Shown: positions 1,577 through 46,742 of the stretch, in pieces | Numbering within the stretch: position 1 is the first letter of the stretch | How the letters are laid out: each line of letters starts with the position of its first letter | NCBI RefSeq assembly: GCF_003633715.1 | Contig: NZ_RBIE01000002.1 | Coordinates: 1-64,000, forward strand | Origin: Thermovibrio guaymasensis | Lineage (GTDB): Bacteria; Aquificota; Aquificia; Desulfurobacteriales; Desulfurobacteriaceae | Direction: 5' to 3' | Length of the DNA: 64,000 nucleotides | Made by a program: the position numbers and the translations under genes | Notes under the pieces: generated by a model | Told to the model about the DNA's origin: nothing | Databases searched by the model: none | Seen by the model: only the letters and a program-made list of their open reading frames with translations

Positions 1577-3958
1577 ATGAAGATTACATACAGGTGGCTT
1601 AACGAGTTTATAGACGTTAGCGACTTAAGCGCTCAGGAAGTTGCAGATATACTAACCGACGTCGGTATAGAGGTTGACTCTGTCCGCTACGCTGGAGAAA
1701 ACCTTGAAAAGGTTGTAACTGGAAAGATCATTGAAATATCAAAACACCCAAACGCTGACAGGTTAAAGATCTGCCAGGTTGACGTTGGAGAAACTGTTTT
1801 ACAGATAGTTACGGGAGCTGATAACGTATTTGAAGGAGCAGTTGTCCCTGTTGCCCTTCACGGAGCTAAGCTTCCAATAGGAGTAAGAATTAAAAAGAGT
1901 AAGCTGAGGGGAGCTGTTTCAAACGGTATGCTCTGTTCAGAGGAGGAGCTGGGACTTACTGAATCTGCAAGCGGAATAATGATACTCCCAGATGATACAC
2001 CAATTGGAAGGGATATAAAGGAAGTCCTTAACCTTGACGACTGGATAATTGAGTATGAGATAACAACAAACAGGCCAGATGCTCTATCGGTTTTAGGGAT
2101 AGCAAGGGAACTTAGAGCAGTTTTAGGAAGGCAGATAACTCTCCCTGAAACTTCCTACAAGGAAGGGGACTTTGAGGCTCAGGAGGAGGTAAGCCTTAAA
2201 GTCCTTGACGGAGCAGCCTGCCCAAGGTATGAAGGATTTGTCGTTAAAGGAATAGAAAACAGGGAAAGTCCCCTTTGGCTCAAAGTTAGGCTCTACCTTG
2301 TAGGTTTAAGGCCGATAAATGCGGTAGTTGACGTAACAAACTACGTTATGTACGAACTGGGACAACCCCTCCACGCATTTGACCTTAGGAAGCTAGCTGG
2401 AAGGGAAGTTGTAGTAAGAAGAGCTAGGAAAGGAGAGAAAATAAGGACTTTAGACGGAGTTGAAAGGGAGCTCTCAGAAGAGGACCTCGTAATAGCAGAC
2501 TCTGAAAGGCCAGTAGCCATTGCTGGGATAATAGGAGGAGAGGAGAGCGGAACTGATTTCTCAACAGAGGAACTCTTTTTAGAGAGTGCCCACTTTGAAC
2601 CTATGACTGTAAGGAGGACTTCCAAGAGGCTCGGAATTTCAACTGACGCTTCCTACAGGTTTGAAAGGGGAGCAGACATTGAATCCTGTGAATTTGCAGG
2701 AAAGAGAGCTCTCCACCTAATCCAGAAGTTAACAGGCGGAGAGGTTGCAAAGGGGAAGGTCTCTTTCTACCCTAAGCCTTACACTCCAAAGGTAATCGTC
2801 TTTAACCCTGAAAGGGCAACAAAGCTCCTTGGAGTAAACATCCCTTCAAGGAAGGCATACGACATACTTACGGGCCTTGGATTTACAGTTAAAAAGGAGA
2901 GGGAATACGTAGTAGTTAAAGTCCCCTCCTGGAGGAAGTACGACGTAGGAAGGGAAATAGACCTCATAGAAGAGGTTGTAAGAATCTTTGGGATGAAAAA
3001 CGTTGTTAGCTCCTACCCCCTAATGCACTCTGAAGTAAAGAAGAACTTTGAACCATTTAGAGTAGAAAGGGTTAAAGAGCTTTTAAGTGACCTGGGGTTA
3101 ACTGAAGCAATCAACTACTCCTTCATTGGAGAAAGTTTATACAGTAAGTTCAACCTACAAACCGGCTCCCTCGTAAAGATTAAGAACCCGCTCTCTGAAG
3201 AGTGGGTCTACATGAGAAACTTCATCTTCCCAAGCCTGGTTCAAAACGCAGTAAACAACATAAACAGGAACGAGAAAGACGTATTCCTATTTGAAGCCGC
3301 AAAGGTCTTTGAGCCAACGGAGGGAGAACTTCCAAAGGAGATCTTAAAGCTCGGAATTGTAATGACGGGAGAGGTTCCCGAGGGGCTATTCTCCAAGAGA
3401 GAGGTAGACTTTTACGACCTTAAGGGAGTTATTGAGGAAGTACTCTCCTTCTTAAGACTAAAAGGAGAGTTTGAAAGGGAAGAGGAGAAAGATTACCTAC
3501 ACCCGGGACAGAGTGCAAGAGTTAAAGTAAAAGGAGAAACCGTCGGATTTTTAGGGAAACTCCACCCAGATGTCCTTGAAAGGTTTGATGTAAAACAGGA
3601 TATTTACGTAGCAGAAGTTGAACTTGGAAAGCTACTTGAAATGGCAAAAGAAGAGAGAATAGAGTTTAAGCAAATTCCAAAGTTCCCTCCGGTCATGAGG
3701 GACATTGCAGTAATAGTTGACGAAGACGTCCCCGTTGCACAAATTGAAGGTGTAATAGAGAGAGCCGCTAAGTACCTTTACAAAGTGGAACTCTTTGACG
3801 TCTACAAAGGAAAGGGAGTTCCTGAGGGTAAAAAGAGCGTAGCCTTTTCTTTAACCTTCAGAGCTCCAGACAGAACCCTTTCAGACGAAGAGGTTAACAG
3901 GGTTCTAGATGCTATAATTGAGGAGCTTGAAAAAGTAGGAGCTAAACTAAGGGGCTAA
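1577..3958 (+). CDS. pheT: Phenylalanine-tRNA ligase beta subunit
   Basis: PheT is the structural and editing beta subunit of phenylalanyl-tRNA synthetase. Its 793 residues show the family layout: an N-terminal EMAP/OB-fold tRNA-binding domain (about 40-150), the B3/B4 editing domain that hydrolyses Tyr-tRNA-Phe, the B5 domain, a core resembling a class II fold, and a C-terminal anticodon-binding FDX-ACB domain (about 700-793, IPKFPPVMRDIAVIV). ATG 1577 is two bases after the pheS stop, and the ribosome-binding site GGTGAG lies within the end of pheS. Nothing is missing or broken. Confidence 0.98.
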   Translation: MKITYRWLNEFIDVSDLSAQEVADILTDVGIEVDSVRYAGENLEKVVTGKIIEISKHPNADRLKICQVDVGETVLQIVTGADNVFEGAVVPVALHGAKLPIGVRIKKSKLRGAVSNGMLCSEEELGLTESASGIMILPDDTPIGRDIKEVLNLDDWIIEYEITTNRPDALSVLGIARELRAVLGRQITLPETSYKEGDFEAQEEVSLKVLDGAACPRYEGFVVKGIENRESPLWLKVRLYLVGLRPINAVVDVTNYVMYELGQPLHAFDLRKLAGREVVVRRARKGEKIRTLDGVERELSEEDLVIADSERPVAIAGIIGGEESGTDFSTEELFLESAHFEPMTVRRTSKRLGISTDASYRFERGADIESCEFAGKRALHLIQKLTGGEVAKGKVSFYPKPYTPKVIVFNPERATKLLGVNIPSRKAYDILTGLGFTVKKEREYVVVKVPSWRKYDVGREIDLIEEVVRIFGMKNVVSSYPLMHSEVKKNFEPFRVERVKELLSDLGLTEAINYSFIGESLYSKFNLQTGSLVKIKNPLSEEWVYMRNFIFPSLVQNAVNNINRNEKDVFLFEAAKVFEPTEGELPKEILKLGIVMTGEVPEGLFSKREVDFYDLKGVIEEVLSFLRLKGEFEREEEKDYLHPGQSARVKVKGETVGFLGKLHPDVLERFDVKQDIYVAEVELGKLLEMAKEERIEFKQIPKFPPVMRDIAVIVDEDVPVAQIEGVIERAAKYLYKVELFDVYKGKGVPEGKKSVAFSLTFRAPDRTLSDEEVNRVLDAIIEELEKVGAKLRG

Positions 3959-3968
3959 GAGGAAGATT

Positions 3969-4265
3969 GTGAGCTTACCAAATACTGTTGAAGTAATAAT
4001 TTCCGGCAGGAAATTTACGATAAAGACGGATAAAGACCCAGATTACGTAAAGAGCCTCGCCCAGCGCCTTGAGGTTATGATAGAGAAAATAAAGGCAGGC
4101 AACAGCAGGGTTACGTTTGACAAAGCCCTGATTGTTGCCTGCTTCTACTTACTCGATGAGAACGAATCGCTGAAAGGTCAAATCAGGGAACTCGGAGAAG
4201 AGATAAAGAGGCTTGAAGAGGGAGCAAAACTGCTTGTTACCACCGGTAAGAAGCTTGCCCCCTAA
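3969..4265 (+). CDS. zapA: Cell division protein ZapA
   Basis: This 98-residue protein fits the ZapA family of FtsZ-ring stabilisers: an N-terminal globular part (EVIISGRKFTIKTDKDPDYV) followed by a helix that would form the tetrameric coiled coil. The GTG start at 3969 follows GAGGAAG with good spacing, ten bases after pheT. The order pheT-zapA-5-formyl-THF cyclo-ligase-rny occurs in several bacteria and supports the assignment. The family is small and weakly conserved, so the call rests partly on context. Confidence 0.88.
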   Translation: MSLPNTVEVIISGRKFTIKTDKDPDYVKSLAQRLEVMIEKIKAGNSRVTFDKALIVACFYLLDENESLKGQIRELGEEIKRLEEGAKLLVTTGKKLAP

Positions 4266-4278
4266 CAATCTTCCTTGA

Positions 4279-4301
4279 AGCCCCTAGAAAACTTAGGGGT
4301 T
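4279..4301 (+). promoter_or_regulatory. Hairpin masking the ribosome-binding site of the cyclo-ligase gene
   Basis: CCCCTA (4281-4286) pairs perfectly with TAGGGG (4294-4299), and flanking A-T and G-T pairs extend the stem to about eight pairs around a seven-base loop. The 3' arm contains the only Shine-Dalgarno-like bases (AGGGG) ahead of the GTG start at 4308. There is no T-run, so it is not an ordinary terminator. It could limit translation of the cyclo-ligase unless ribosomes leaving zapA, or high temperature, open it. That role is inference. Confidence 0.45.
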
Positions 4302-4307
4302 ATCAAT

Positions 4308-4880
4308 GTGTCTAAAAAAGAGATAATAAGACAGAAGCTAAAAGAGAAAAGGCTTCTCCTAACACCCGACGAAGTCAAAAGGAAAAGCCAGAAAATAGTT
4401 CAGGAGCTGGAAAGGTTAGTCAAGGAACTAAAAGCCTCCTCTTTCCTCTTTTACCACCCCATAAAAAACGAGCCCGACATCACCCCCCTTGCTGAAAAGC
4501 TAATTCGGGAAGGTAAAACTGTGGCCTTTCCCAAAGTGATAGGAAGGGAGATTACCCCCTTAAGAGTCAAATCGCTCTCAGAACTCCTACCGGGAAGGTT
4601 TGGAATAAAAGAACCTCCATACAGACCGGATTTCATTTTGAGGGAAGTTGAAGTAGTTTTCGTTCCAGGAATCGCCTTTGATAAAAAGGGCTACAGAATA
4701 GGCTTTGGAGGAGGCTACTACGACAGGTTACTTGAAAAATTCCCGGTAAAGTCCAAAATTGGAGTTTGCTTTGACTTCCAACTTACAGAGGAAGTACCTA
4801 AAGAACCCTTTGACATACCAGTTGACGTTATAGTTACAGACAAAACAACTGTAAGGAGGAAAGAATGGAAACAATCTTAG
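4308..4880 (+). CDS. 5-formyltetrahydrofolate cyclo-ligase
   Basis: This ATP-dependent cytoplasmic enzyme converts 5-formyl-THF to 5,10-methenyl-THF and so returns a dead-end folate to the one-carbon pool. About 190 residues; the C-terminal motif [11 protein letters not shown] is the family signature, preceded by [14 protein letters not shown] place the start at GTG 4308 (MSKKEIIRQ); an in-frame TTG at 4275 has no ribosome-binding site and would lie across a hairpin. It overlaps the start of rny by 16 bp. Its position after zapA matches the widespread zapA-ygfA linkage, but no room remains for a 6S RNA between them. Confidence 0.93.
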
Positions 4881-6538
4881 TTGCGATATTTGCCGTTCTA
4901 ACAGGCCTAGCAGGAGGCTACGTTGTAGGAACTAAAAAAGGACAGGCAATAAAAGAGGACATTGAAAAGAAAGTCTTAGAAAAGGCTGAAAGGGAAGCAG
5001 AGGAGCTAATCAAAAGGGCCGAGAGGGACGCTCAGGAGATAAAGGAAAAGGCTCAAAAGCTTCTAGAAGAGGCAAGGGAAAAGTACGAGGATATGAAGAA
5101 AAAAGCTCTCCTTGAGGCAAAAGAGGAAGTCTTAAAGGAAAAGGAGAAGGTAGAGGAAGAGCTCAGAGAAAAGAGGAAGGAGTTAAGTGAGCTTGAGAAA
5201 AGGCTCCTAAGGAGGGAAGAGTACTTAGATAAGAGGGAAACGACCCTTGACAAGAGAGAGGAGAACCTTGATAGGCGAGCAGACTTCCTTGATAAATTAG
5301 AGGCAGAGCTTGAGGAGAAGAGAACAGAGGTAGAAAAGCTTGAAGCAGAGCTCCTTGAAAAGGAGATGAAAGTTAACCAGCTAATTGAGGAAGAACTGAA
5401 GAAACTTGAAGAGATATCCGGAATGACAAGGGAAGAAGCCCAGGAAGAGCTCATGAGAAGGATGGAAGACGAAATAAGGAGAGACCTTGCAGTAAGGTAT
5501 AAGAGAATTGAAGAGGAATTTGAGTCTACAGTTGATAGAAGGGCAAAAAAGATACTTGCAACTGCAATCCAGAGGTTATCAACCGATATCGTAGCCGAAA
5601 CAACAGTTTCAGTAGTTGACCTTCCAAACAACGAGATGAAGGGAAGAATTATAGGTAGAGAAGGAAGGAACATAAGGGCCTTTGAGCTTGCCACAGGAGT
5701 TGACCTCATCATTGACGACACCCCCGAAGCTGTAACTATCTCAAGCTTTGATCCTGTAAGGAGGGAAATTGCAAGGATAGCACTTGAAAGGCTCGTGGCT
5801 GATGGAAGGATTCACCCTGCAAGGATAGAGGAGGTAGTTGAAAAGGTTAAGGGGGAAATTGAACAGGAAATCCTCAATGCAGCAGAGGAGGTCCTGTTTG
5901 AACTTGGAATAGATAACGTTCACCCAGAGCTAAAGAAACTCCTCGGTAAACTTAAGTTCAGGACTAGCTACGGCCAGAACGTCCTACAGCACGTAAAGGA
6001 GGTAGCCTACCTTTCTGGAATGATAGCTGCCGAAATTGGCGCAGACGTTCAGCTTGCAAAGAGGGCAGGACTCTTCCACGATATAGGAAAGGCCGTAAGC
6101 CACGAAGTTGAGGGATCCCACGCAATAATCGGTGCAGACATACTTAAGAAGTACGGAGAGCCTGAGGCTGTGGTAAACGCTGCTGCTGCCCACCACGGAG
6201 AGGTTGAGTTTACCTGCATTGAGTCAATATGCGCAGCCACTGCCGACGCCCTATCTGCAGCAAGGCCTGGAGCAAGGAGGGAAAGTTTAGAGGCCTACAT
6301 TAAGAGGATTGAGAAGCTAGAGAGTATCGCTGAATCGTTCCCCGGAGTTATGAAGGCCTTTGCAATTCAGGCAGGTAGAGAGATTAGGATAATGGTTGAA
6401 CCAGACAAGATAACAGACGAGGAGGCTGCATTCCTCGCCCACCAAATTTCAAAGAAGATTGAAGAAGAGGTTCAGTACCCAGGACAGATTAAAGTTACAG
6501 TCATAAGGGAAACGAGGGCCGTTGACTATGCAAAGTAA
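4865..6538 (+). CDS. rny: Ribonuclease Y
   Basis: RNase Y is a membrane-tethered endoribonuclease that initiates mRNA decay. The 557 residues show an N-terminal transmembrane helix (about 2-20), a long Glu/Lys/Arg-rich coiled coil (about 25-200), a KH domain with [15 protein letters not shown] (about residue 257), and an HD domain with the metal-binding FHDIGKAV (about residue 403) and AHHGE. ATG 4865 follows AGGAGGAA and lies within the end of the cyclo-ligase gene. Its 3' end overlaps selB. The repetitive Lys/Glu coding of the coiled coil creates a spurious Ser-rich frame on the other strand. Confidence 0.97.
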
Positions 6539-42351: not shown

Positions 42352-44355
42352 ATGGGAGAAGGAAAGCCAAAGGTAGATTTAAAGTCCCCGAAACTTTACA
42401 TAAATAGGGAGCTCTCCTGGCTTGAGTTTAACAGGAGGGTCTTAGAGGAAGCTCAGGACAAAACGAACCCTCTACTAGAGAGGTTAAAGTTCATAGCAAT
42501 TTTCTTTACAAACCTTGACGAGTTCTTCATGATAAGAGTTGCAGGCCTTAAGAAAATGGTCTCCGCAGGAATAAACAAACCTTCCTTTGACGGTTTAACT
42601 CCAAAAGAGCAGCTGAAGAAAATTTCAAGGAAGACGAGGGAGCTCCTAAAGGAAACTGAAAAAACCTACAAGGAACTCTTAACCCTCTTAAAGAAAGAAG
42701 GTATTCACATCTACACTTATAGGGAGCTCCCATCCAGGTTAAAGAAGAAGGCAGATAAGTACTTTAAAGAGTTTATCTTCCCCGTTTTAACTCCTCTTGC
42801 AGTTGACTTAACCCATCCCTTTCCTCACCTTCCATCCCTCTCCTTCAACATAATAGTTGAAATGATAGGGGAGGAGCTCCGCTTTGGCCTCGTTCCAATA
42901 CCAAAAGTTCTCCCTCGCTTCGTTGAGCTTGAAGAGGGAAAGTTCGTCTACCTTGAGGAGGTAATCGTTAACCACCTTAAAGAGCTCTTCCCCCAACAGG
43001 AGATAAGGAGTTACGCCACCTTTAAAGTAACAAGAGATGCAGACATAGTAATCCAGGAAGACGAGGCTGACGACCTACTAGAGGCAATAGAGAAGGGGCT
43101 TAGGAACAGGAAATTTGGAGAGCCGGTTAGACTTGAAATAAACGGTGGTTCAGAGCTAACTATCTCCCTCTTAAAAGATGAACTTGAGTTGGGCGAAGAT
43201 GACATTTACAGGATGAGAATTCCCCTCAAGCTATCGGACCTCTGGAGCCTTTATAAACAGGTAGATAGGCCAGACCTTAAGTTTACCCCTTACGTCCCGT
43301 ACTACCCTCCTCAGTTTGAAGTTGAAGTATTCACGGCACTGAAGAACAGCAGTTCAATTCTCTTCCACCCTTACGAGTCCTTTGACCCAATAGTTGAGCT
43401 CATAGAAGAAGCTGCAGAAGACCCTAACGTCCTTGCAATAAAACAGACCCTATACAGGGTTGGAAGGAACTCCCCGATCGTTGAAGCCTTAAGTAAGGCA
43501 GCCCAAAAGGGCAAAGAGGTAACTGCAGTAGTTGAGCTAAAGGCCCGCTTTGACGAGGAGAGCAACATAGTTTGGGCAAGGAAACTTGAAGAGGACGGTG
43601 TACACGTAGTTTACGGAGTTCCCGGCCTTAAAACCCACGGAAAACTCCTAATGATAGTGAGGAAGGAAGAGGGAAAGATAAAGCGCTACGTTCACATAGG
43701 AACCGGCAACTACAACGTTGAAACGGCGAAGGTTTACTCGGACGTCAGCTACCTAACGAGCGATGAGACAATCGGAAGGGACGTTTCAAGGATATTCAAC
43801 GTTATAACAGGCTACTTCCACCCTCCAGAGCTTAAAAAGCTCTACATATCCCCCGTTAACCTGAAGGAGAAAGTCCTATCCTTGATTGAAAATGAGAGGG
43901 AGAGGATAGTTGCAAAGATGAACTCCCTAGTTGACCCTGAAGTAATTCAGGCCCTCTACAGGGCCTCTCAGAGGGGAGTAAAGGTAGAACTCTTAGTCAG
44001 GGGAATATGCTGTTTAAGGCCCGGAATTGAAGGAATAAGTGAAAACATAAAGGTTATAAGTATCGTCGGGAAATACCTTGAACATGCAAGGATATTCTTC
44101 TTCCAGGGCCAAGATGAAGTCTACATAAGCAGTGCAGACTGGATGCCCAGGAACTTCCACAGGAGGGTTGAAACCCTTACTCCTATTGAGGAACCAAAGT
44201 TGAAAGAGAAGCTTAAGGAAATTCTGGAAATCCAGTTAAAGGATACTGCAAAGGCCAGAATCCTTCAGCCAGACGGTACGTACACAAGGCCAAAGAAGAG
44301 GGACTTTAACTCACAGGAGTACTTTGAAAGATGGGTAAGAGAGTATTCATTGTAA
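42352..44355 (+). CDS. ppk: Polyphosphate kinase PPK1
   Basis: PPK1 makes polyphosphate from ATP. The 667 residues have the N-terminal domain (YINRELSWLEFNRRVLEEA), the head domain, and two PLD-like catalytic domains with active-site His in LKTHGKLLMIV and YVHIGTGNYNVETAKV. It follows ppx with 4 bp and overlaps sixA by 25 bp, so synthesis, breakdown and a phosphohistidine phosphatase are in one operon. Confidence 0.97.
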   Translation: MGEGKPKVDLKSPKLYINRELSWLEFNRRVLEEAQDKTNPLLERLKFIAIFFTNLDEFFMIRVAGLKKMVSAGINKPSFDGLTPKEQLKKISRKTRELLKETEKTYKELLTLLKKEGIHIYTYRELPSRLKKKADKYFKEFIFPVLTPLAVDLTHPFPHLPSLSFNIIVEMIGEELRFGLVPIPKVLPRFVELEEGKFVYLEEVIVNHLKELFPQQEIRSYATFKVTRDADIVIQEDEADDLLEAIEKGLRNRKFGEPVRLEINGGSELTISLLKDELELGEDDIYRMRIPLKLSDLWSLYKQVDRPDLKFTPYVPYYPPQFEVEVFTALKNSSSILFHPYESFDPIVELIEEAAEDPNVLAIKQTLYRVGRNSPIVEALSKAAQKGKEVTAVVELKARFDEESNIVWARKLEEDGVHVVYGVPGLKTHGKLLMIVRKEEGKIKRYVHIGTGNYNVETAKVYSDVSYLTSDETIGRDVSRIFNVITGYFHPPELKKLYISPVNLKEKVLSLIENERERIVAKMNSLVDPEVIQALYRASQRGVKVELLVRGICCLRPGIEGISENIKVISIVGKYLEHARIFFFQGQDEVYISSADWMPRNFHRRVETLTPIEEPKLKEKLKEILEIQLKDTAKARILQPDGTYTRPKKRDFNSQEYFERWVREYSL

Positions 44356-45192: not shown

Positions 45193-45933
45193 CTAAAGGA
45201 AAGAGGAATACTTCCTTTCAACCTCTTCAGTGTAAACCCTCTTAACTGCGTCTTTATAAACGATCAAGGGAGGTCCAACGGTAATCCCTTTACCTCCTCC
45301 CTTTAAACACTCTAGAAGAAAGAGGTTGGCCTCCCTACCTTCTTCAGGATAGATGAAGCGAAGCCTCTTAGGTTCAAGGGAGTACTTCCTGCAGAGACAA
45401 AGTCCATCAACAAACCGAACTGTAGGCAAAAGAAGGTAAAACCTTCCCTTATTTTTAAGTAGGTAAGAGGCAGCCTTAATGAAGTCCTCAAGAGTTGCAA
45501 AGAGCTCCTGCCTTGCAACTGCCCTATGGCCTCCTTTTGATAGACTTCCCCTTCCAACCTCTACAAAGGGCGGATTTGAGACTGCAACGTCAAACTCACC
45601 TGAACGGAAGAGCTTCTTAACGTCTCTAACGTTAAGGTGAACGGCCTCAAACCTATCTGAAACTCCGTTAACTTCAGCGTTCCTCTTTGAGAGGTAAACG
45701 TTTTCCTCAAGGACGTCAATACCTACAGCAGTAAGGTTGGGGTATTTAAGGAGAAGGAGGATAGGTATAACCCCACACCCTGTTCCAAGGTCAACTAACC
45801 TCTCTTCCCCCTTAACCCTAACAAAATCTGCAAGGAGAAAGGTATCAGTTCCAAACCTAAAGCCGTCCTTAAACTGATAGAACTTGCACTTTTCCTTTAA
45901 AAAAGTAGATAGGTCAAGCTTATTCCTATCCAC
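45193..45933 (-). CDS. TrmN6-like methyltransferase (COG4123)
   Basis: A Rossmann-fold SAM methyltransferase of 246 residues, with motif I DLGTGCGVIPILLL and the catalytic NPPF (SNPPFVEVGRG) of enzymes that methylate exocyclic amines. FKDGFRFGTDTFLLADFV matches the tRNA1(Val) A37 N6-methyltransferase (YfiC/TrmN6) opening. tRNA is the probable substrate. The GTG start at 45933 overlaps the immunity-type gene by 8 bp, so all three minus-strand genes may be one transcript. Confidence 0.88.
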   Translation of the reverse strand: MDRNKLDLSTFLKEKCKFYQFKDGFRFGTDTFLLADFVRVKGEERLVDLGTGCGVIPILLLLKYPNLTAVGIDVLEENVYLSKRNAEVNGVSDRFEAVHLNVRDVKKLFRSGEFDVAVSNPPFVEVGRGSLSKGGHRAVARQELFATLEDFIKAASYLLKNKGRFYLLLPTVRFVDGLCLCRKYSLEPKRLRFIYPEEGREANLFLLECLKGGGKGITVGPPLIVYKDAVKRVYTEEVERKYSSFL

Positions 45934-46237
45934 AGAGCTTCCCTTTTATAGACAGGATGTACCTCTTAACCTGCCCCATCCACCTGAGAAAATCGTTGGT
46001 GTCGTCAAAGTAATAGTTTGCAACGTCACCCACAACGTGCTCAAAGTTTGCAGGATTGTTCTTTAAGAAATCTTCTATTTCCCTTATAAGTTCTTCAGCC
46101 TTTTCGCACTCTGTAACCTCTTCTCTTACTATATCCCAGTCAGATTTCCCCTCCTCTACACCGTAAGCAAAGGCTGCTAGGAGCGAATAGAGGTAAGGGT
46201 ACTTCTCCTCAAAAACCCTCTCCTTCTCGTAGTCCAC
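45926..46237 (-). CDS. Putative immunity protein (CdiI-like)
   Basis: An acidic cytoplasmic protein of 103 residues (23 Asp/Glu against 13 Lys/Arg by my count). Its pattern, EKYPYLYSLLAAFAYG..., a run of helices with charged faces and a terminal WMGQVKRYIL, resembles CdiI immunity families in which an FP-x-L-x-x-hydrophobic start precedes several helices and a terminal Trp-Leu helix. It begins at GTG 46237, ten bases after the toxin-like gene, behind GGAGG. No signal peptide, so it would act in the cytoplasm. The identity with CdiI is by pattern recognition and context. Confidence 0.7.
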   Translation of the reverse strand: MDYEKERVFEEKYPYLYSLLAAFAYGVEEGKSDWDIVREEVTECEKAEELIREIEDFLKNNPANFEHVVGDVANYYFDDTNDFLRWMGQVKRYILSIKGKLCG

Positions 46238-46247
46238 CTCATCCTCC

Positions 46248-46742
46248 CTACGAAGGATATGCAGTTAGAACTATAAAGCCGTAAGAATCATCCTTCTTTA
46301 ATATAACCCTAACTCTATGGGAAGTAATCTTTCTGAATTTATTCCTAGTCACTCTCTCTACCTTAATTCCTACAGGTTCAGAGCAACTGTAAGTCAAAAC
46401 CAGCTTGTCAGGAGAGTGTGGACTTTTCAACCAGGACACAATCTTATCCCTGTTAAAGTAAATAGCCCTTCTAACACACCTTTCAGCAGTGGCCAAATCG
46501 TAAAAGGAACTTGCCGCCCTTAACCTAGGCTCTTCCCTCAGCCTGTTTACCAGCCAACTGTAGTCCTTTCCAACGTGGCGGCGTATCGTGTGGCCCCCTA
46601 CCCTCTCGTAAAATTCAAGCCCCTTGTATCCAAGTTCAGTTAATACCTTAACTTCCGAACTTTCACCAGTTTTACTTTCCTCAAAACACCCTCCTATGAG
46701 AAGGAAAGGAATGAGAAGTAAGAAAACTAAAATTTTCTTCAC
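46248..46742 (-). CDS. Lipoprotein with bacterial RNase A-like toxin domain (CdiA-CT type)
   Basis: A 164-residue protein with a lipoprotein signal (MKKILVFLLLIPFLLIGGC, lipid on Cys19, residue +2 Phe, not Asp). After a short linker the rest (about 45-164) matches the RNase A-like domain of CDI toxins: GGHTIRRHVGKD, AASSFYDLATAE and the ending LTAYP. The domain was described for Yersinia CdiA-CT, with a catalytic His, an Arg 11 residues on, and a Thr-x-Tyr pair; His56, Arg67, Thr160 and Tyr162 would fit. It has two Cys (89, 120) and a net charge of about +10. GTG start at 46742 behind GGAGGAGGAT. The next gene is the putative immunity gene. Confidence 0.82.
   Translation of the reverse strand: MKKILVFLLLIPFLLIGGCFEESKTGESSEVKVLTELGYKGLEFYERVGGHTIRRHVGKDYSWLVNRLREEPRLRAASSFYDLATAERCVRRAIYFNRDKIVSWLKSPHSPDKLVLTYSCSEPVGIKVERVTRNKFRKITSHRVRVILKKDDSYGFIVLTAYPS

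What the first reader, a model, noticed from the sequence alone, without database searches (positions are those of the whole stretch)
45926..46742. Lipoprotein-borne RNase A-like toxin with CdiI-like immunity gene, without a CdiA/CdiB carrier
Seen: gene one encodes a 164-residue lipoprotein (LIGGC, +2 Phe) whose mature part is almost entirely a domain with GGHTIRRHVGKD, AASSFYDLATAE and LTAYP. Gene two starts 10 bp later and encodes an acidic 103-residue protein. Net charges by my count are about +10 and -10. Known: bacterial RNase A-like toxins occur at the C-terminus of CdiA (Yersinia kristensenii CdiA-CT), and lipoprotein toxins with immunity partners (SitA/SitI) exist in Myxococcus. Inference: a short lipoprotein toxin presented on the outer membrane or periplasmic face of a thermophile, with a cytoplasmic immunity protein, would be a little-described delivery design. 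His56, Arg67, Thr160 and Tyr162 fit the recalled catalytic spacing (His, Arg 11 on, Thr-x-Tyr).
Basis: partly seen in the sequence, partly recalled or inferred. Interest (0 to 1): 0.9.

Follow-up and report, generated by a model that had tools for sequence, protein, structure and literature searches.

The report
Lipoprotein RNase toxin with immunity partner
A hot-vent bacterium carries a tiny lipid-anchored version of a bacterial RNA-cutting toxin next to a distant relative of the protein that neutralises such toxins, and sister species have lost the toxin but kept the antidote, which is what one would expect if neighbours poison each other with it.

Summary
Both genes are real and lie exactly where described. 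Gene one (46248-46742, minus) is a 164-aa lipoprotein. Residues 50-163 are a bacterial RNase A domain (PF18431, E 3.8e-30), the predicted fold matches Y. kristensenii CdiA-CT (5e3e, TM 0.87), and the four catalytic residues are invariant in 10/10 orthologues. Gene two (45926-46237, minus) has no curated family hit and no fold hit. However, a profile I built from 15 immunity proteins ranks all 17 orthologues of gene two above 1,208 decoy segments from the same genome; profile-profile probability is 85%, in register, robust to dropping members. It is therefore most likely a divergent CdiI_2-type immunity protein.

The pair sits at one syntenic site in two genera of Desulfurobacteriaceae. Seven relatives lack the toxin but keep the immunity gene; one still holds a toxin relic beside it. 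Orphan immunity genes evolve faster but remain under purifying selection. This fits intercellular competition better than self-protection alone.

The delivery route is unproven: no two-partner-secretion or T6SS marker was found, and there is no SitA-like escort domain. NCBIfam already names an 'RNase A-like domain-containing lipoprotein' family, so the toxin architecture is catalogued. Verdict: new variant of a known kind.

The parts
46248..46742 (-). RNase A-like lipoprotein toxin gene, 164 aa, GTG start preceded by GGAGGAGGAT
   Evidence: ORF; PF18431 3.8e-30; NF041883 62 bits end to end (cut-off 200); 5e3e_B 1.3e-13
46686..46742 (-). Type II (lipoprotein) signal peptide with lipobox LIGG-C19; +2 residue Phe
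   Evidence: Cys19 invariant in 10 orthologues, +2 is Phe or Leu, never Asp; LolA in own genome
46254..46595 (-). RNase A domain, residues 50-163; catalytic His56 (46575-46577), Arg67 (46542-46544), Thr160 (46263-46265), Tyr162 (46257-46259)
   Evidence: profile, 36% identity and TM 0.87 to 5e3e; all four residues invariant and aligned to His175/Arg186/Thr276/Tyr278 of CdiA-CT Ykris (PMC9086364)
45926..46237 (-). Immunity gene, acidic 103 aa, all-helical, divergent CdiI_2 relative
   Evidence: hhalign probability 85%, 85 columns in register; 17/17 orthologues above 1,208 decoys; no curated hit and no fold hit
45193..45933 (-). TrmN/PrmC-like methyltransferase, translationally overlapping neighbour; context, not part of the toxin-immunity pair
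   Evidence: present throughout the phylum; adjacent to the immunity gene in 17/17 genomes that have it

Best explanation
This is a vertically inherited toxin-immunity pair. The toxin is a minimal outer-membrane-type lipoprotein: a Sec/type II signal peptide and lipobox, a linker of about 30 residues, then a complete bacterial RNase A domain of the CdiA-CT Ykris type. The partner is a cytoplasmic, all-helical, divergent CdiI_2 immunity protein that most likely binds and blocks the RNase active site. It protects the producer from RNase that folds before export or arrives from kin. Shown here: the domain, catalytic residues, fold, lipobox conservation, fixed toxin-then-immunity gene order, remote homology of the partner to RNase A-linked immunity proteins, toxin loss with immunity retained, and slower immunity evolution when the toxin is present. 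Inferred: RNase activity, binding, outer-membrane location, and transfer to neighbouring cells (by vesicles, contact or proteolytic release) followed by RNA cleavage in their cytoplasm.
For: Toxin: PF18431 3.8e-30, 5e3e_B 1.3e-13, Foldseek 3.7e-11 with TM 0.87, catalytic residues invariant in 10/10. Immunity: CdiI_2 profile versus partner profile, probability 85%, P 6e-6, 85 columns in register; 17/17 orthologues above 1,208 native decoys; robust when members are dropped, 0/300 shuffles, reversed 13 versus 35. The same gene order, RNase A domain followed by CdiI_2, occurs in Pantoea, Rhizobium and viral-contig loci. Evolution: toxin in 10 genomes of one clade, immunity in 17; toxin relic beside an intact immunity gene in G130; partner evolves about 2.8 times faster on toxin-less tips, permutation p 0.0015, with an ObgE control showing no effect; orphan pairs still omega 0.06-0.08. 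Orphan CdiI expressed and protective is known in E. coli (PMC3150448). LolA present.
Against: The partner scores below every curated CdiI model, and Foldseek of its model does not find the 5e3e immunity chain. Simple parsimony puts the partner before the toxin, which requires several toxin losses if the two arrived together. The partner is linked to the methyltransferase in 17/17 genomes but to the toxin in only 10/17. Tip rates are not independent samples, and one toxin-bearing tip (G135) breaks the rate pattern. No delivery system was identified.
Confidence: 0.7

Rival explanations
1. Barnase/barstar-like exoenzyme: the lipoprotein is an envelope RNase for scavenging or degrading outside RNA, and the partner only protects the producer's own cytoplasm. 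No interbacterial killing is involved.
For: No secretion system or escort domain was found. The toxin is single-copy and not polymorphic among relatives. It evolves under ordinary purifying selection at one syntenic site.
Against: Seven genomes keep the immunity gene without the toxin, still under purifying selection. A self-protection gene should decay once its enzyme is gone. Relatives of both domains sit in T6SS loci and phage-head protein fusions.
Confidence: 0.22
2. The partner is an old operon gene of the methyltransferase, unrelated in function to the lipoprotein. The lipoprotein is a lone RNase inserted upstream of it.
For: The partner is adjacent to the methyltransferase in 17/17 genomes, overlapping it by 8 bp here. 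It is present without toxin or relic in g3, g5 and g7. Parsimony favours partner first. No curated or fold match.
Against: Remote homology to CdiI_2, the family paired with this very toxin, would be a large coincidence. Slower evolution in toxin-bearing lineages.
Confidence: 0.1
3. Inactive or decaying remnant: the domain no longer cuts RNA or is not expressed.
For: One lineage (G130) has only a relic.
Against: Catalytic quartet, lipobox and frame are intact in 10/10 genomes; omega 0.09-0.18.
Confidence: 0.03

Closest known systems
CdiA-CT/CdiI of Yersinia kristensenii (PDB 5e3e)
   Same: RNase A domain, 36% identity, all four catalytic residues; CdiI_2-type immunity gene directly downstream
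   Different: There the domain is the tail of a large CdiA secreted by CdiB; here it is a 164-aa lipoprotein. The immunity protein is too divergent for the curated model.
NCBIfam NF041883 RNase_A_lipo (RNase A-like domain-containing lipoprotein)
   Same: Same architecture aligned end to end, 62 bits; all 10 orthologues match the model
   Different: The window protein is far below the 200-bit cut-off, so it is a separate branch. The host range and partner genes of NF041883 members could not be examined here.
SitA/SitI lipoprotein toxins of Myxococcus (PMC5562445, PMC8546572)
   Same: Lipobox-borne nuclease toxin with a cognate cytoplasmic immunity gene
   Different: SitA has an N-terminal escort domain of about 375 aa, TraA/B outer-membrane exchange and polymorphic tails; here the linker is about 30 aa and the toxin is monomorphic.
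Barnase/barstar
   Same: Exported RNase with a small acidic cytoplasmic inhibitor (own knowledge)
   Different: Different RNase fold; here lipid-anchored, and orphan inhibitors persist without the enzyme.

Membership tests
Bacterial RNase A toxins (PF18431) | Profile match over the curated cut-off | tested here: met
   105 bits versus 27
Bacterial RNase A toxins (PF18431) | RNase A-type fold | tested here: met
   Model pLDDT 86, 5e3e TM 0.87
Bacterial RNase A toxins (PF18431) | Catalytic His/Arg/Thr/Tyr | tested here: met
   Invariant in 10/10, aligned to 5e3e; residues from PMC9086364
Bacterial RNase A toxins (PF18431) | RNase activity | not testable with these tools
   Needs an enzyme assay
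CdiI_2 immunity proteins (PF18593) | Score over the curated cut-off | tested here: not met
   No hit for any of 17 members; none at the partner place in 136 genomes
CdiI_2 immunity proteins (PF18593) | Homology to immunity proteins next to RNase A domains | tested here: met
   hhalign 85%, decoy ranking 17/17
CdiI_2 immunity proteins (PF18593) | Fold like 5e3e chain A | tested here: inconclusive
   Six-helix model, pLDDT 92, but no Foldseek hit to 5e3e chain A
CdiI_2 immunity proteins (PF18593) | Gene directly downstream of its toxin | tested here: met
   10/10 toxin-bearing genomes
CDI system (cdiBAI) | CdiA filament and CdiB transporter | tested here: not met
   The toxin is a 164-aa lipoprotein. 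ShlB and TPS profiles found nothing in the own genome, but these profiles also rang in no control genome
SitA/SitI | Escort domain of about 375 aa | tested here: not met
   Only about 30 residues between lipobox and domain; PMC8546572
SitA/SitI | TraA/TraB outer-membrane exchange | not tested
NF041883 RNase_A_lipo | Score over 200 bits | tested here: not met
   62 bits for the window protein

The most novel reading that the evidence does not exclude
A stripped-down weapon in vent Aquificota: a lipid-anchored RNase A domain with no carrier or escort domain, passed between cells through the outer membrane or vesicles. Related species that lost the toxin keep the immunity gene as a shield against neighbours.
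Probability: 0.42. Interest if true: 0.72.

Novelty: new variant of a known kind. Interest (0 to 1): 0.55.

Why it matters
[quoted passage not shown] Here is one with immunity but only a lipid anchor. It asks how little a delivered toxin needs. It also offers a natural experiment in toxin loss with orphan immunity across a well-sampled family, and a potentially heat-stable RNase/inhibitor pair.

Tried and rejected
Mid-way I judged the partner unrelated to immunity: no curated hits, no fold hit, presence in 7 toxin-less genomes, tight link to the methyltransferase. Single-sequence hhalign against two known immunity proteins gave under 1% probability. A five-sequence profile gave 14%, but above 200/200 column shuffles and above nearly all native segments, which prompted the larger profile and the reversal. 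Charge complementarity was rejected as evidence. The phage collection and the first viral-contig scan gave no relatives of the lipoprotein. The genome-contig scan returned only one near relative. No paper on RNase A-like lipoproteins was found. The whole genome was not available as a file, so decoys came from 400 kb of contig 1 plus the window.

Full report
Observation. The second overlaps the start codon of a TrmN/PrmC-like methyltransferase gene by 8 bp, and upstream lies the divergent obgE gene. The genome is a member of Desulfurobacteriaceae (Aquificota): a named relative at 77% identity is a Desulfurobacteriaceae MAG, and a same-genus genome with a 1,682,965-base replicon matches, from memory, Thermovibrio ammonificans.

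Toxin. The lipoprotein matches PF18431 over its whole domain, the Y. kristensenii CdiA-CT sequence and its structure (Foldseek E 3.7e-11, TM 0.87). His56, Arg67, Thr160 and Tyr162, equivalent to His175, Arg186, Thr276 and Tyr278 (PMC9086364), are invariant in 10 orthologues, as is the lipobox cysteine. The +2 residue is Phe or Leu, which under the E. coli rule means outer membrane (own knowledge; the rule is unproven here). LolA is present.

Distribution. PF18431 occurs in 10 of 136 genomes of the phylum: all of genus g1 (4/4) and g2 (6/6), one copy each, always at the same place next to obgE. The partner occurs in 17, including seven without the toxin (g3, g5, g6, g7), and is always next to the methyltransferase. 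On a tree of ObgE, methyltransferase and Ppk, the toxin is confined to one clade (support 99) in which only G130 lacks it. The partner reaches deeper. In G130 a relic of the toxin's last strand (RLILKRRGKFGFIVFTAYP) lies directly before an intact partner gene. Spacers of the other toxin-less genomes that could be read carry no relic.

Is the partner an immunity protein? Curated models say nothing and its six-helix model (pLDDT 92) has no fold match. I collected immunity proteins from Pantoea and Rhizobium plasmids and from viral contigs, nearly all encoded beside RNase A domains (the Pantoea piersonii one has no annotated toxin beside it), plus 5e3e chain A; most are Pfam CdiI_2. Against this 15-member profile the partner profile gives probability 85%, P 6e-6, over 85 columns in register. 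That is better than two of the 15 members score when left out (26% and 74%). All 17 partner orthologues rank above 1,208 native protein segments. Dropping any single member leaves 16 or 17 above the first decoy. Reversed and 300 shuffled profiles score at most 19 against 35. I therefore take it as a divergent CdiI_2 relative. The homology is remote and should be confirmed by structure or binding.

Evolutionary behaviour. Relative to methyltransferase plus ObgE, the partner evolves about 2.8 times faster on toxin-less tips (permutation p 0.0015; Mann-Whitney p 0.005-0.014 by normaliser), while ObgE against methyltransferase shows no such effect. The toxin-bearing genomes are related, so this is suggestive rather than conclusive, and G135 is an exception. 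Orphan pairs still show omega 0.06-0.08, so the orphan is kept for something. Orphan CdiI proteins that are expressed and protect are known from E. coli EC93 (PMC3150448).

Mechanism. The most likely reading is a toxin-immunity pair in which the RNase is exported by Sec, lipidated and carried to the outer membrane, while the immunity protein stays in the cytoplasm. The persistence of orphan immunity favours use between cells over a private barnase-like arrangement. The delivery step is not shown. No two-partner secretion profile was found (without a working control), the T6SS sheath profile was negative with a working control, and there is no room for a SitA-type escort domain (PMC8546572).

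Novelty. The domain, its immunity family and even lipoproteins with this domain (NF041883) are catalogued. The new parts are the minimal lipoprotein paired with a divergent CdiI_2 gene, its stable vertical inheritance in a thermophilic family, and the documented loss of toxin with immunity retained.

Noticed in passing
L143:1564-3411 and 3849-4956 (IMGVR_UViG_3300036901_000141): A phage portal protein (PF04860) fused at its C-terminus to an RNase A toxin domain, followed by a small immunity-like ORF. A second, broken-up copy of the same arrangement follows it.
   Followed up: partly
L144:2320-3387 and L146:2332-3390: Phage Mu protein F domain fused to an RNase A toxin domain (Pfam checked for L144), with a 100-aa downstream immunity-like ORF that Pfam does not recognise.
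   Followed up: partly
L145:3350-4764 (IMGVR_UViG_3300012090_000197): Four tandem CdiI_2 immunity paralogues downstream of an apparently frameshifted RNase A toxin gene, next to an integrase-like ORF.
   Followed up: partly
L020:1420-1482 (G130:C33), approximate: Relic of the lost RNase A lipoprotein gene, only the last strand kept, just upstream of an intact immunity gene.
   Followed up: yes
G123 and genus g4 genomes: The methyltransferase is no longer beside obgE and the immunity gene is absent, so presence of the immunity gene tracks this genomic arrangement.
   Followed up: partly
Window 42352-44355 (ppk) and relatives: Polyphosphate kinase was not found in genera g5 and g7 and in the sister family f2, although it is conserved elsewhere in the family.
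   Followed up: no
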